Positions 21,505-25,492 of a stretch of 34,894 nucleotides of DNA are shown here, one piece after another (within the stretch, counting starts at the first letter, position 1; every line of letters begins with the position of its first letter). The notes under the pieces are model-generated. The model searched no databases, was not told the DNA's origin, and saw only the letters and a list, made by a program, of their open reading frames with translations. The translations under genes were made by a program, and so were the position numbers. The stretch is taken from positions 1 through 34,894 of the IMG/VR virus record IMGVR_UViG_3300028590_000060. The stretch is one strand, 5' to 3'. This stretch comes from a virus.

Positions 21505-22104
21505 TCAGGCGGCCTCTTGCAGCGCCGCGGCGGGGTCGCTTTGGATGCGCGAAACCACGTCGTTGCTCAGGACGGTCAGGGAGGTTCCGGTGCCGACGAT
21601 GCTCTCGCGCATCGCCTCCGCCGCAGGCCAAATGCTGGCGACCTCGTTGAAGGTCTTGGCGCCGTAGATCAGAGCCTTAAAATCACTCAGGCGGCGGGCG
21701 CACTCGGCCTCGTGGGCTTTCTCCGCATCCTTGTAGGCATCGTAAGCCGCAAGTGCCTCACCTTTGAGAAGGAAGGCCGCGCGATTGCAGTTCGAGCCGG
21801 GGCGCAGCGGAATGCGCTTGTCATCATCGCGGAAGCAGAAGCGATCATAATTGTAATGACCGCTCGAAACGTAGATGCAAGCGTCCTTGCTGGCCGCATC
21901 GTAGCGCACCAAGACTGCCATATCCTTCTGCGGGTACTCGGCCACGACAGCGGCATGAACGGCCTGCGCGGCATGTTCGTAGGCATTGTCCAGCGCTGCT
22001 GCGTCGGCGGTCGCCTTAACCTGCTTGCGCGCTAGGCGGTACAGGTCGTCGCGATTGCCCTGCGAGAGGCGCTTGTTCTTCTGAACGGGGGCTTCGGTTG
22101 CCAT
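21505..22104 (-). CDS. First early-left protein, Nmad5-like (199 aa)
   Basis: The product starts MATEAPVQKNKRLSQGNRDDLYRLARK, with a helical N-terminus, a strand-rich middle (DMAVLVRYDAASKDACIYVSSGHYNYDRFCF) and a helical end with FNEVASIWPAAEAMRES. The order RLTxxxR helix ... WPEAxxL resembles the phage Nmad5 domain, named as nucleotide-modification associated; this match is tentative. It is the first gene behind the operator-controlled left promoter, the place of lambda N. ATG at 22113 (MGTMAT) is an alternative start. Three tandem 7-base repeats (GATGGGA) form the ribosome-binding region. Confidence 0.5.
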   Translation of the reverse strand: MATEAPVQKNKRLSQGNRDDLYRLARKQVKATADAAALDNAYEHAAQAVHAAVVAEYPQKDMAVLVRYDAASKDACIYVSSGHYNYDRFCFRDDDKRIPLRPGSNCNRAAFLLKGEALAAYDAYKDAEKAHEAECARRLSDFKALIYGAKTFNEVASIWPAAEAMRESIVGTGTSLTVLSNDVVSRIQSDPAAALQEAA

Positions 22105-22108
22105 CGTC

Positions 22109-22129
22109 CCCATCTCCCATCTCCCATCG
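22109..22129 (-). repeat. Three tandem 7-base repeats at the ribosome site of the first left gene
   Basis: On the minus strand the unit GATGGGA is present three times (last copy followed by GG). Each copy holds an SD-like GGGAG and an ATG, so copy number would change which start and SD are paired. Confidence 0.5.
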
Positions 22130-22158
22130 CCTGCTCCCAATGAGCAGCTGATGGGATG

Positions 22159-22187
22159 GATGTACAAAAGCTCTGTACGAGATGCAA
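22159..22187 (-). promoter_or_regulatory. Left early promoter with operator
   Basis: On the minus strand TTGCAT (-35) and TACATC (-10) are separated by 17 bases. The spacer and -10 hold the inverted repeat GTACA-N7-TGTAC (22162-22178). A 20-base block, CGTACAGRGCTTTTGTACAT, is shared with the cro promoter with a single difference. Transcription would begin near 22152, giving a leader of 40-50 bases before the first gene. Confidence 0.7.
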
Positions 22188-22258: not shown

Positions 22259-23287
22259 ATGCGGAATGAAGCGGACGTTGTACGCTTATCCTCAATGCGG
22301 CTGACGAACCTTCAATATCTGCGAGCGCTCGCAGCGGGGTTGGTCGCGCTGCTGCATGCCGCGATAGAGGCGGGATTGAGCTTCTCGATCGGCGAAATGG
22401 GGGTGGACATATTCTTCGTCCTAAGCGGTTTCCTGATGTGGACCATCACCGCAAACGAGACGCGCCCGCTCGCCTTTCTGCGTGACCGCGTCAGGCGGAT
22501 TATGCCGAGTTATTGGCTCGTGACGATTGCCGTATCCATAGCGATCGCCTCAGGGCTCTACAGGACGACCACGATATCATTCGACCAAGCCGTCATGTCG
22601 CTACTGTTTATCCCTCATTTCTCGACAGACGGGCTGCTCTATCCGGTCCTGAAGCAGGGATGGACGCTCAACTACGAGATGTTCTTCTACGCACTGTTCG
22701 CCGCGACGCTGCTTCTCCCGCGCCGATACCGTGCATGGGCTCTAATCGCCATGCTTGGCGCCCTGGTCGCGCTCGGGCTCCTATTCAGCCCTACCGATGC
22801 GATGGGGATTTTCTACACCGATCCTATCATGCTCGAATTTACGCTGGGCATAGGGCTAGGGATATTGTGGGAGCGGGGTTACAGCCGCGCCGGGTTCGGG
22901 GTTGTCGCCGCGATCTCCACGATCGGGTTGCTCCTATCAATGATCGTGGAAGAGCGCCTGTTCTTTTTCGGCATGCCCGCCCTGCTCATCGTGGCCCTTG
23001 CGCTCGCATTTGAGAAGGTGGGCAAGGTACCTCATTTACCTTTGGTAAAGCTTCTCGGCGACGCAAGTTATTCGATCTACCTGTGGCACACTATCGCGAT
23101 TTCTGCCTGCGTCCGGATCGTCAGTCATTTCGGTCTCGACCCGCTATTCGTCATGGTCGCCGGGCCTCCTGCCGGCATAGCCTTAGGGATGCTGGTCTAT
23201 TGGGCCGTGGAGGAACCACTGTTGAAGTTGATGCGAAAGAGCCCGGATCGCGCTATACCATCCGCTACAGGCATTTCAGCGAGCTAG
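22259..23287 (+). CDS. Acyltransferase family 3 membrane protein (O-antigen / polysaccharide acylation)
   Basis: The 342-aa protein has about ten membrane spans. It carries the family marks R22-x10-H33 (YLRALAAGLVALLHA) and MGVDIFFVLSGFLMW (47-61), then RRIMPSYW and, near the end, GDASYSIYLWHT. This family transfers acetyl or other acyl groups to O-antigen, capsule or glycans at the inner membrane; phage-borne copies cause serotype conversion. It lies in the immunity region, divergent from the left operon and convergent with the repressor, fitting expression in the lysogen. AAGGGTGAG precedes ATG 22259; ATG 22295 is an alternative. Confidence 0.85.
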   Translation: MRNEADVVRLSSMRLTNLQYLRALAAGLVALLHAAIEAGLSFSIGEMGVDIFFVLSGFLMWTITANETRPLAFLRDRVRRIMPSYWLVTIAVSIAIASGLYRTTTISFDQAVMSLLFIPHFSTDGLLYPVLKQGWTLNYEMFFYALFAATLLLPRRYRAWALIAMLGALVALGLLFSPTDAMGIFYTDPIMLEFTLGIGLGILWERGYSRAGFGVVAAISTIGLLLSMIVEERLFFFGMPALLIVALALAFEKVGKVPHLPLVKLLGDASYSIYLWHTIAISACVRIVSHFGLDPLFVMVAGPPAGIALGMLVYWAVEEPLLKLMRKSPDRAIPSATGISAS

Positions 23288-23290
23288 GAA

Positions 23291-23422
23291 ATGGAAACCA
23301 GACTGATCATAGCCTACGCGATCATAGCTATGATGATCATAGCGGGTGGCGCTGTCGGATGGCATGCGATCAAGAACCACCGCGAACGACATAACATGTA
23401 TCGCAAGCGCAAGCGGTACTAG
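23291..23422 (+). CDS. Tiny membrane protein (43 aa) behind the acyltransferase
   Basis: METRLIIAYAIIAMMIIAGG forms one membrane helix, followed by a strongly basic tail (KNHRERHNMYRKRKRY). It begins three bases after the acyltransferase stop region, with TAGGAA just upstream. It may assist the acyltransferase or act alone at the membrane. The DNA holds three copies of GATCATAGC, coding the Ile-rich helix. Confidence 0.5.
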   Translation: METRLIIAYAIIAMMIIAGGAVGWHAIKNHRERHNMYRKRKRY

Positions 23423-23669
23423 CTCTGTCCATCCCATGGGCATCCATAACTGTCTGAAAGCATAACCGTTTGCCCTTGATTAAGATCAAGCTGCGTACCG
23501 TTATCGACCGGCCTCGACTCTGGCGGCGATTCCTCACACAGGGCTTGCGATGTTGGATTCCGGCTGAGAGAACAAATCGGGTACAAGGGTGGGTTGATGC
23601 CTGATCGTATTACTGACGCCGGATGCACTGTTGGATGTATCGATTGCAAACTTCGGTGCGCAACGATCG
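23423..23669. other. Non-coding gap between convergent genes
   Basis: About 250 bases separate the tiny membrane gene from the end of the repressor gene. Open frames here have no ribosome sites and no protein-like composition. No clear terminator with a T-run was seen. The base composition is lower in GC than the surroundings. Confidence 0.5.
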
Positions 23670-24197
23670 TCATGAGTGTTGTCGAGTTGCGCCGCGACCG
23701 GGCGCGGTTGATTCGCGAACTTTCGCCCGGAGCGCGCGCGGATCTGTTGGATGAGTTGCGGCGAGTTGAAGAGCATTTGGCAACAGCCGAGCAAGCTTTC
23801 GCGCGCGCTCGTCCTGTTCCGGGTCGATACCCACCCCGTCCAACAACCCTGACAGTGCCTCTGTCAGCGCGTCTTCACTAGGGAAGGCGATGTTGAACGG
23901 CACGAGCTGAAAGGGCGGCGATGGGCCCCGTATTTGCAGCGCCTCCCGATCCTGCTCTTTCACGGTAAGTCCGGCCAACGCCAGAACCGCGCTCGCGTCG
24001 CCTCCAAGGCGCTCAAAAACCTCTGCGAACTCGCGCGCCTTATCGAGTGGCAGATGCGCCTTTTTGAACTGCTTGCTTTCGTAATAGCCGTAAGCGTTCG
24101 GCATCTCATAGCCCAGTTCGCGGGCGATCTCGCGCACGCCCGGCGACCCCGGAAGGGCCTCCCGTAGAGCTTTGAGTGATTCGGCTGCATTAGGCAT
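23670..24197 (-). CDS. Phage repressor (CI-like, without peptidase domain)
   Basis: The chosen start (24197) gives a 175-aa product. The N-terminal half has a helix-turn-helix-like region (LPGSPGVREIARELGYEMPNAYGYYESKQFKK). The helix DKAREFAEVFERLGGDASAVLALAGL follows, as in XRE-type repressors. The C-terminal half (90-175) has no Ser-Lys peptidase motif, so RecA-driven self-cleavage is not expected. The gene is divergent from a Cro-like gene with operators between them, the classical switch layout. Upstream ATG codons would extend across the cro promoter and are rejected. Confidence 0.7.
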   Translation of the reverse strand: MPNAAESLKALREALPGSPGVREIARELGYEMPNAYGYYESKQFKKAHLPLDKAREFAEVFERLGGDASAVLALAGLTVKEQDREALQIRGPSPPFQLVPFNIAFPSEDALTEALSGLLDGVGIDPEQDERARKLARLLPNALQLAATHPTDPRALRAKVRESTAPGRGATRQHS

Positions 24198-24216
24198 GCG
24201 GCCTATTTGCAGATTC

Positions 24217-24237
24217 TTTGGACAGCGAATGTCCAAA
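24217..24237. promoter_or_regulatory. 21-bp palindrome upstream of the repressor gene
   Basis: TTTGGACA and TGTCCAAA form a perfect inverted repeat with a five-base spacer, 20 bp from the repressor start. It differs from the GTACA-N7-TGTAC operators, so it may be the site of a second regulator or an autoregulatory site. Its TGGACAGCG core also resembles the attP arm repeats. Confidence 0.6.
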
Positions 24238-24244
24238 TCTACCG

Positions 24245-24273
24245 TTGCAATACGTACAGGGCTTTTGTACATA
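24245..24273 (+). promoter_or_regulatory. Right early promoter with operator (cro promoter)
   Basis: TTGCAA (-35, 24245-24250) and TACATA (-10, 24268-24273) are 17 bases apart, with operator GTACA-N7-TGTAC at 24254-24270 lying across spacer and -10. The start codon of the Cro-like gene is only eight bases after the -10, so transcription should begin at or next to the ATG, and no ribosome site exists. A leaderless mRNA is predicted. Confidence 0.75.
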
Positions 24274-24281
24274 CTTCTGCC

Positions 24282-24503
24282 ATGACTCAGATCGCAGAGG
24301 TTTTGTCCCGCTTCGGCACCGTCAGGCAGGCCGCCGAGAAGATCGGCCGCGCTCCATCGGTAATCCAATATTGGCGCACATCGGGCTCCATCCCTTCGAA
24401 AAACATGTCCGGCGTGCTGGATGCGGCGCGCCGTCATGGCATCAAGGTCTCGGCCAGTGACCTGATCCCCTGTGGGGGCACTGAGCATTCGAGGGCGGCA
24501 TGA
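24282..24503 (+). CDS. Cro-like HTH regulator (YdaS-type)
   Basis: The 73-aa protein MTQIAEVLSRFGTVRQAAEKIGRAPSVIQYW (in pieces) has the order of a Cro/YdaS HTH: helix, TVRQAAEKIG, turn, PSVIQYWRTSG as recognition helix, then IPSKNMSGVLDAARRHGI. It should bind the operators in the divergent region and turn off early promoters or the repressor. It has no ribosome site and appears to be read from a leaderless mRNA. It overlaps the next gene (ATGA). Confidence 0.8.
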   Translation: MTQIAEVLSRFGTVRQAAEKIGRAPSVIQYWRTSGSIPSKNMSGVLDAARRHGIKVSASDLIPCGGTEHSRAA

Positions 24504-24718
24504 GTGTTCGTGCGATCCTGCGTCGCTTGACGCACGACCCCGCGACCAACGCCGAACTCCAGGATTACGCTGTTGACCACAGCGGCGGCATCGCCCGCAC
24601 CTGCGCCAAGCTGATTGCGCGGGGCAAGGTTGAGCGGATCAACGGAGCAAGCGGCCGGGGCTCGCGGGCAGTTTATGCGCTGGTTCACACCCCTTCCACC
24701 GAACGGGGGCAGTCATGA
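24500..24718 (+). CDS. Small winged-helix-like protein (72 aa)
   Basis: MSVRAILRRLTHDPATNAELQDYAVDHSGGIARTCAKLIARGKVERINGASG (in pieces) has the form of a winged helix: helix, NAELQ, recognition-type helix GIARTCAKLIARG, then a short wing (VERINGASGRGSRAVYAL). Such proteins often act as early regulators. It overlaps both neighbours by four bases. The specific role is unknown. Confidence 0.6.
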   Translation: MSVRAILRRLTHDPATNAELQDYAVDHSGGIARTCAKLIARGKVERINGASGRGSRAVYALVHTPSTERGQS

Positions 24719-24918
24719 TCGATAGCATCTCCGCACCTGCCACATGGGCACGCTTCCTCGCTGAACGCGACGGAACGCCCTTCACCCCGCTCACCGAGCT
24801 TGAACTTGAGCAGCGTCTCAAAGGCAACGCGCCAGATCGCTGCACCGACAAGCTGCGGGGGCGGGGTGGGGAACTCGTTACTCATCACAACCGCGCTTCT
24901 GCGCAGCATCGGAGCTAA
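24715..24918 (+). CDS. Small hypothetical protein (67 aa)
   Basis: MIDSISAPATWARFLAERDGTPFTPLTELELEQRLKGNAPDRC begins a small helical protein with a basic end (TDKLRGRGGELVTHHNRASAQHRS). The start overlaps the previous stop (ATGA). Function unknown. Confidence 0.6.
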   Translation: MIDSISAPATWARFLAERDGTPFTPLTELELEQRLKGNAPDRCTDKLRGRGGELVTHHNRASAQHRS

Positions 24919-24923
24919 AGATC

Positions 24924-25355
24924 ATGGCTTCCAATGACGAGATCGTGCGTCAGCGCCAGTCGGTCATTCGCCGGGAGATGGATCGCCGCGGCATCGCGCT
25001 TAAGGCGGTGTCGTTCGACAGCAGCATTCCATACCCGACGCTGCTTACCTACTTCCCCCAGGAAGGCGGCTCAAGGCCGGTTATGATTCCGGTGTCGGCG
25101 TTGTACGCGCTGGCCGATGGCGAGACACCAGCGCTCCCGCTGGACCTGCTGTCGCTGCTGCTGCCCGGTGGCACGCATATCGTCCGCGCACCCGAGGCAA
25201 TCGACCACGATCAGGTCGAGGAAGCCTGTCGCGACTTCCTGGCGACCAAGGGCGCGTCGCACCATCCCGAGAGTGAGATGGGCCGCGAGATCGGCCCCAC
25301 TGAAAAGCAGAAGCTGGACGAAAAGGTCGTGCACCTTTCGGCGGTCGCGGCATGA
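24924..25355 (+). CDS. CII-like / Phage_CP76-type regulator (143 aa)
   Basis: The N-terminal half reads MASNDEIVRQRQSVIRREMDRRGIALKAVSFDSSIPYPTLLTYFP, a helix-turn-helix-like arrangement. It is followed by IPVSALYALADGETPALPLDLLSLLLP and a C-terminal EACRDFLATKGASHHPESEMGREIGP. This resembles early regulators in alphaproteobacterial phages placed after cro, similar to Phage_CP76 proteins. By position it could be the CII-type activator of repressor or integrase. The family match is tentative. Confidence 0.5.
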   Translation: MASNDEIVRQRQSVIRREMDRRGIALKAVSFDSSIPYPTLLTYFPQEGGSRPVMIPVSALYALADGETPALPLDLLSLLLPGGTHIVRAPEAIDHDQVEEACRDFLATKGASHHPESEMGREIGPTEKQKLDEKVVHLSAVAA

Positions 25356-25492
25356 CCGGCGACCTCTACACCCCCTGCATCATCCAGCGCAATTCGACGG
25401 GCAAGATCATCCGAATGGAGCCACTGCGCTTCATCGCGCTCAAGGACTTGTCCCTCAACTACCGAGGGAGGGCGCAGCAATGGAAGTCCTGA
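25352..25492 (+). CDS. Small hypothetical protein (46 aa)
   Basis: MTGDLYTPCIIQRNSTGKII and RMEPLRFIALKDLSLNYRGR form a small basic, strand-rich protein. The start overlaps the stop of the regulator gene (ATGA) and the end overlaps the next start by 13 bases. Function unknown. Confidence 0.5.
   Translation: MTGDLYTPCIIQRNSTGKIIRMEPLRFIALKDLSLNYRGRAQQWKS

What the first reader, a model, noticed from the sequence alone, without database searches (positions are those of the whole stretch)
24245..24290. Predicted leaderless mRNA for the Cro-like gene
The -10 hexamer ends at 24273 and the ATG is at 24282, so the transcript should start within one or two bases of the start codon. No ribosome site exists. 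In lambda the leaderless message is cI from PRM; here it would be cro from the strong right promoter. The left promoter, with nearly the same sequence, has a leader and a ribosome site. This gives unequal translation from equal promoters.
Basis: inference. Interest (0 to 1): 0.5.

Follow-up and report, generated by a model that had tools for sequence, protein, structure and literature searches.

The report
Leaderless message for phage Cro
In this phage, and in more than half of the related sequences examined, the messenger RNA of the lytic-switch protein Cro is predicted to begin almost exactly at the start codon with no ribosome-binding site, while a near-copy of the promoter on the left makes an ordinary message; a leaderless Cro message was already known from one phage, so this extends a known trick to a family.

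Summary
TTGCAA (24245-24250), 17 nt, TACATA (24268-24273) and 8 nt lead to the cro ATG at 24282, so the transcript should start 0-3 nt before the AUG. The anti-SD duplex is +1.9 kcal/mol. The protein is a Cro by sequence and predicted fold. The layout is inherited: in 17 of 29 non-redundant relatives the best promoter ends 6-9 nt before the start (shuffles mean 1.75, maximum 7). Without weights, 17 of 29 have a TTG 35-37 nt before the start. Seven relatives, clustered on the tree, keep the promoter but have a 19-29 nt gap; four of them start with GTG. PL-like promoters in the window and three relatives lie 32-57 nt before SD-led starts. The scan also calls phage PY54 cro leaderless, where published RACE shows this. 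So leaderless cro is not new; the family-wide pattern and the PR/PL asymmetry did not appear in my literature listings. 'Strong' and 'equal' promoters and unequal translation are unproven: Caulobacter translates leaderless messages as well as others. No transcript was measured.

The parts
24245..24250 (+). -35 of the right promoter PR (TTGCAA)
   Evidence: best-scoring promoter in the 110 nt upstream
24268..24273 (+). -10 of PR (TACATA); no T at -7, a base not conserved in Zymomonas and Caulobacter promoters
   Evidence: PMC7566282 passages
24279..24282 (+). predicted transcription start (0-3 nt leader)
   Evidence: inference from the -10 position and the discriminator lengths in PMC7566282
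24282..24503 (+). cro-like gene, 73 aa, carph-isopro domain; no Shine-Dalgarno
24252..24272 (+). operator-like palindrome covering most of the PR spacer and -10
   Evidence: 6 of 7 arm pairs; near-copy at PL
24217..24237 (+). second palindrome TTTGGACA-N5-TGTCCAAA between PR and the repressor gene; like palindromes in L002 and L003
23670..24197 (-). divergent repressor-like gene (CI position), 175 aa
   Evidence: 42% identity over 71 aa to the Psul1 'CI-like repressor'
24500..24718 (+). next gene downstream; its ATG overlaps the cro stop (ATGA); SD -6.1
22182..22187 (-). -35 of the left promoter PL (TTGCAT)
22159..22164 (-). -10 of PL (TACATC); operator copy 22159-22178
22105..22152 (-). predicted PL leader with hairpin (repeat arms 22122-22136 / 22142-22156) and SD
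   Evidence: start inferred
21505..22104 (-). first gene after PL (start 22104), no Pfam match

Best explanation
24245-24290 is the right early promoter of a temperate phage immunity region, placed so that RNA polymerase starts at, or at most about 3 nt before, the cro AUG. Cro is thus made from a leaderless mRNA, by initiation on the 5'-terminal AUG without a Shine-Dalgarno contact. Promoter spacer and -10 are overlaid by an operator-like palindrome whose right half supplies most of the -10, and the AUG follows 9 nt after it. The next gene overlaps cro (ATGA) and has its own SD, so one repressible promoter would give one mRNA whose first gene is leaderless and whose later genes are SD-led. 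A near-copy of promoter and operator (PL) drives an ordinary leadered message leftward. The layout is inherited in this Cro family; a clustered set of relatives has a leader instead. Shown: the sequence features, their conservation and their non-random placement. Inferred: transcript start, leaderless translation, repression by binding, and any effect on Cro dose.
For: Geometry and no SD. Placement (counted at 5-9 nt): 16 of 23 loci, shuffles mean 1.39, max 4; 17 of 29, shuffles mean 1.75, max 7. TTG at 35-37 nt in 17 of 29; outside 33-38 no 3-nt bin of the grid 12-71 holds more than 5. Annotated genes with the same layout: 3 of 57 (Psul1, cro among them) and 2 of 69 (phi2LM21). SD of -3 or better: 0 of 16 leaderless cro loci, against 41 of 57 and 59 of 69 annotated genes. 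Leadered set of 7: gap 19-29 nt, SD -3.0 to -7.1, 4 of 7 GTG; the label needs 2 changes on the tree, shuffled mean 6.3, 0 of 500 as low. Positive control PY54: best promoter TGGACA-18-CATAAT, 6 nt before ATG, no SD; the paper names CATAAT and maps the transcript to the AUG. PL starts with SDs in four phages. Palindromes: 14 of 19 loci with 6 or more of 7 arm pairs, shuffles mean 3.53, max 7. Helix 1 of the model spans residues 3-9, which fits a start at 24282.
Against: No transcript was measured for any member of this family. The -10 is weak by sigma-70 consensus and the generic scan misses it. Five of 29 loci are unclear by the scan (L006, L009, L028, L030, L100), though L009 and L028 have a TTG at 35 nt. 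The scan does not recover PY54 cI, also reported leaderless, and is ambiguous for N15 cro. All 17 leaderless-scored loci start with ATG, but so do 46 of 57 and 60 of 69 annotated genes, so this is weak support. Start codons of relatives were set by hand from the protein alignment. The tree is of about 70 residues; one leaderless-scored row (L138) lies among the leadered ones and L095 is on a very long branch. The 8-nt gap in the window allows a 2-3 nt leader. L030 and L031 encode 450-aa proteins, L031 a riboflavin-enzyme fusion, not phage cro.
Confidence: 0.85

Rival explanations
1. cro is read from a longer transcript that starts upstream, perhaps as an N-extended protein from in-frame TTG 24207 (25 extra codons).
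For: The frame is open from TTG 24207, and L003 has an in-frame ATG at the like place with a similar upstream peptide.
Against: That likeness can follow from conserved operators and promoter. In-frame stops lie upstream in L005, L093 and L102. The solved Cro 3bd1 aligns from residue 1. No SD precedes ATG 24282 whatever the transcript start.
Confidence: 0.05
2. Translation starts inside, at TTG 24303 (codon 8), with AGAGG just upstream as ribosome site.
For: AGAGG ends 2 nt before TTG 24303.
Against: Two nt is a very short spacing. The start would remove helix 1 (residues 3-9). L002 has no TTG there and L003 no SD before it.
Confidence: 0.03
3. The cro message is leaderless but translated as well as any other, so the layout is only a by-product of tight packing of operator, promoter and gene. 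(This rivals the dosage inference, not leaderlessness itself.)
For: In C. crescentus leaderless, non-SD and SD mRNAs are translated with equal efficiency and 24.6% of starts have an SD (PMC4117421 passages). The best palindrome ends 8-12 nt before the start in 12 of 19 loci.
Against: Six of six downstream starts checked in the window, and most annotated genes of Psul1 and phi2LM21, have SDs. R. sphaeroides acuR, leaderless first gene of an operon, is translated far less than later genes (PMC3017554 passages). PL, with nearly the same operator, keeps a leader.
Confidence: 0.45

Closest known systems
Yersinia phage PY54 cro (telomere phage immunity region)
   Same: Divergent cI/cro; strong cro promoter with a -10 6 nt before ATG; no SD; 5' RACE start at the AUG (PMC4488713, section 3.6 read).
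   Different: PY54 cI is also leaderless by RACE; its Cro hardly matches the present family profile (1.1 bits; N15 Cro 21.0); a Yersinia phage.
Lambda cI from PRM and CP-933P paaR2
   Same: Leaderless message of a phage switch gene (PMC8630535 passages).
   Different: There the repressor side is leaderless; here the Cro side.
Rhodobacter sphaeroides acuR-acuI-dddL
   Same: Alphaproteobacterial regulator of its own operon, leaderless first gene by RACE (PMC3017554 passages).
   Different: TetR family, not phage; low translation was measured there, not here.
Paracoccus phage vB_PsuS_Psul1 CI/Cro region
   Same: Homologous Cro (35% identity) and repressor; leaderless geometry at PR and a leadered, SD-bearing PL.
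   Different: Another operator sequence (TGTGCGC type). Its paper has no occurrence of 'promoter' or 'leaderless' in the main text (word search).

Membership tests
Cro family of phage lytic repressors | Cro-like HTH protein by sequence and fold | tested here: met
   NF046037 54.2 bits, cut-off 38; profile of 15 sequences finds 3bd1 Cro 8.7e-10, P22 Cro 0.0017, N15 Cro 0.0022; model pLDDT 83.7, best PDB matches Xfaso and N15 Cro, probability 1.00 but E-values 0.009-0.05. Pfam P22_Cro only 14.1 bits, cut-off 30.2.
Cro family of phage lytic repressors | Divergent from a repressor across shared operators | tested here: met
   84-nt gap to the minus-strand gene starting at 24197; homologous to the Psul1 CI-like repressor. 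The repressor itself has no Pfam, NCBIfam or PHROG match at E 0.1 and its model is poor (pLDDT 66.9; no PDB match with E below 0.7).
Cro family of phage lytic repressors | Binds the operators and represses the repressor gene | not testable with these tools
   needs binding and reporter assays
Leaderless mRNAs (leader of 5 nt or less) | -10 placed 6-9 nt before the start codon | tested here: met
   8 nt
Leaderless mRNAs (leader of 5 nt or less) | AUG start | tested here: met
   ATG 24282; 17 of 17 loci scored leaderless
Leaderless mRNAs (leader of 5 nt or less) | No Shine-Dalgarno | tested here: met
   +1.9 kcal/mol
Leaderless mRNAs (leader of 5 nt or less) | Mapped 5' end at the start codon | not testable with these tools
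   no transcript data for this virus at hand

The most novel reading that the evidence does not exclude
A conserved translational asymmetry in the lysis-lysogeny switch of alphaproteobacterial phages: one operator-promoter block is used twice, leaderless at PR (Cro) and with a folded leader and SD at PL. The share of leaderless-competent (70S, initiation-factor-poor) ribosomes would then tune Cro against the other early proteins and let host physiology bias the decision. A clustered set of relatives, including a Sinorhizobium phage, escaped this by a leader.
Probability: 0.2. Interest if true: 0.65.

Novelty: new member of a known kind. Interest (0 to 1): 0.42.

Why it matters
Leaderless phage messages are usually told as a lambda cI curiosity. 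Here the trait sits on the Cro side and is conserved in a family found in Paracoccus, Azospirillum and unassigned viral contigs. There is a natural comparison group (the same promoter with a leader) and a built-in control (PL). That makes the old question of what leaderless initiation does for a genetic switch directly testable in cultured phages such as Psul1.

Tried and rejected
Rejected: an N-extended start at TTG 24207 and an internal start at TTG 24303 (see rivals). Rejected: a leaderless repressor as a family rule; no constant geometry was seen on that side, though the window's best repressor-side candidate (score 5.1, weak) lies 8 nt before ATG 24197. The generic promoter scan is uninformative for this -10. 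Chromosomal family searches added little: 39 of the 42 places lie in open frames of 430 codons or more; 13 loci were looked at. DNA-level search of 22900-25400 in phages: no match. The first 80 nt of the cro mRNA fold no better than shuffles, and neither does the 93-nt PL stretch.

Rows dropped before the counts: redundant upstream regions L022, L026, L032, L033, L096; repeat fetches of the same contigs or records (L007, L008, L013-L019, L023, L025, L094); L027, L092, L103 (same as L005); L029 (same as L004); L034 and L107 (genome of L028); L035 (same as L031); L097 (as L096); L140-L150 (near L139); L012 (frame broken); L121 (no aligned start). L036-L091 and L108-L136 were otherwise not analysed for promoters; hits H17-H19 and H25 were not fetched. 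Start codons were set by hand to the aligned M1; for L138 the ATG 42 nt before the match and for L152 the ATG 18 nt before it were chosen. Of the 23 loci, 3 have an SD of -4 or better (L030, L095, L099), none of them leaderless-scored. The 19 loci are the 17 leaderless-scored ones plus L009 and L028. Hexamer weights and the anti-SD hexamer were recalled; position -7 was left out following PMC7566282.

Full report
What was checked. The window is a 34,894-base virus record. On the plus strand TTGCAA 24245-24250, 17 nt, TACATA 24268-24273 and 8 nt precede ATG 24282. The gene (73 aa) has a carph-isopro domain (54.2 bits, cut-off 38). A profile of 15 sequences, the window's included, finds solved Cro proteins (3bd1, P22 1rzs, N15 2hin), and the predicted fold is closest to Xfaso and N15 Cro, though the Foldseek E-values are modest (0.009-0.05). 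The divergent gene starting at 24197 resembles the annotated CI-like repressor of Paracoccus phage Psul1 (42% over 71 aa) but has no family match. So this is a Cro/repressor switch.

No ribosome site. The best duplex of CCUCCU with the 20 nt before ATG 24282 is +1.9 kcal/mol. Six of six downstream starts (24500, 24715, 24924, 25352, 25662, 26435) give -4.5 to -9.3; the repressor start gives -1.7. In annotated relatives, 41 of 57 (Psul1) and 59 of 69 (phi2LM21) genes reach -3 or better.

Conservation. Searches of viral contigs, phages, plasmids and genomes gave 29 non-redundant upstream regions. Using recalled sigma-70 hexamer weights without position -7, the best promoter in 110 nt ends 6-8 nt before the start in 16 of 23 (200 shuffles, counted at 5-9 nt: mean 1.39, max 4). 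With six more loci it is 17 of 29, at 6-9 nt (mean 1.75, max 7). Without any weights, 17 of 29 have a TTG 35-37 nt before the start, where a -35 must sit for a start at the AUG; outside 33-38 nt no 3-nt bin of the grid holds more than 5. L009 and L028, unclear by the scan, are among these 17, while L101 and L138, called leaderless by the scan, are not. None of the 16 leaderless loci has an SD of -3 or better. The same layout is rare at annotated genes: 3 of 57 in Psul1, cro being one, and 2 of 69 in phi2LM21.

Contrast inside the family. Seven loci (L095, L099, L137, L139, L151-L153) keep the promoter but place it 19-29 nt before the start, with duplexes of -3.0 to -7.1; four of the seven start with GTG. 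On a protein tree the label needs 2 changes (shuffled mean 6.3, 0 of 500 as low; 5 unclear rows not counted). One row among them, L138, is scored leaderless (9 nt), and L095 sits on a very long branch. This is what one expects if a leader arose once or twice in one part of the family. ATG use alone says little: 17 of 17 leaderless-scored loci, but also 46 of 57 and 60 of 69 annotated genes.

Positive control. For PY54 the same scan picks TGGACA-18-CATAAT, 6 nt before the cro ATG, with no SD. The PY54 paper names CATAAT and reports by RACE a single leaderless mRNA species starting at the AUG, for cro and for cI (PMC4488713; section 3.6 and passages seen). The scan misses PY54 cI and is ambiguous for N15 cro.

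Host background, from passages. Zymomonas promoters read TTGNNN-17-TANNNN, most often with a 6-nt discriminator and without T-7; 119 of 2,675 TSS-gene pairs are leaderless by a 5-nt limit (PMC7566282). Caulobacter has 375 leaderless mRNAs, translated as well as others (PMC4117421). S. meliloti has 171, all with AUG (PMC3616915). In R. sphaeroides leaderless acuR is translated far less than the later genes of its operon (PMC3017554). The window's host is unknown; an alphaproteobacterium is inferred from named relatives.

Operator and left promoter. In 14 of 19 loci (the 17 leaderless-scored ones plus L009 and L028) the 42 nt before the start hold a palindrome with 6 or more of 7 arm pairs (shuffles mean 3.53, max 7); its right edge is 8-12 nt before the start in 12 of 19. 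In the window it spans 24252-24272, over spacer and -10. A near-copy of the 20-bp core lies on the minus strand at 22159-22178 (2 mismatches; 0 of 100 shuffles with two matches) in TTGCAT-17-TACATC, 54 nt before ATG 22104 (SD -7.0). Like promoters lie left of the repressor in the L003 contig (53 nt, SD -9.5), in L002 (57 nt, -8.6; its -35 is not clear) and in Psul1 (32 nt, -5.7); with a start about 7 nt after the -10, leaders are about 25-50 nt. For the window's left gene the scan prefers another candidate, 79 nt before the start (6.94 against 5.07 for PL). A second palindrome, 24217-24237, occurs once in the window (6 of 100 shuffles hold such a match), with like palindromes beside the repressor gene in L002 and L003. 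By analogy with PY54, where Cro binds one site next to cI, it may be the Cro site; this is inference.

Limits. PR is not a strong promoter by sequence: the generic scan does not list it, and 20 of 69,788 positions in the window score as high. Whether Cro yield is low is open, and sources conflict. No transcript was measured.

Novelty. Leaderless cro is known from PY54. Listings for leaderless with cro and prophage (20 of 111 papers shown), leaderless mRNA with lysogeny and related terms (20 of 96), leaderless with 'cro gene' (2 of 2), and leaderless, lytic repressor, alphaproteobacter, phage (10 of 19) showed no title or abstract start on the family-wide pattern or the PR/PL asymmetry; papers not shown were not seen. 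'carph-isopro' returned no paper. I rate it a new member of a known kind, with a testable conserved pattern.

Noticed in passing
window 22105-22156 (-): The PL leader can form a 5' hairpin before a purine-rich SD; folded leaders before GGATGGAG occur in the L003 contig, L002 and Psul1 PL regions. Over the longer 93-nt stretch the fold is no better than shuffles. Possible antitermination, stability or translation element.
   Followed up: partly
L031 1501-2850 (L030 alike, not scanned): carph-isopro (Cro-like) domain fused to DHBP synthase and GTP cyclohydrolase II (riboflavin enzymes) in Ponticaulis, behind a palindrome-bearing promoter with leaderless geometry. Looks like a self-regulating enzyme.
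   Followed up: partly
L048 1444-2811 (L036 looks alike, not scanned): A Cro-like domain at the N-terminus of a mitofilin-like (Mic60) inner-membrane protein of an alphaproteobacterium.
   Followed up: partly
L137 and L153, just upstream of cro: In leadered relatives a tiny ORF (8 codons in L137, 3 in L153) ends at or next to the cro start codon; in L137 it begins where the transcript should start. Possibly a leader peptide coupled to cro.
   Followed up: no
window 22259-23287 (+): Acyltransferase 3 family gene on the opposite strand between repressor and PL; a candidate lysogenic-conversion gene.
   Followed up: no
L005 1501-1701: The cro gene of Azospirillum phage Cd is not among the annotated features of its GenBank record.
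   Followed up: yes
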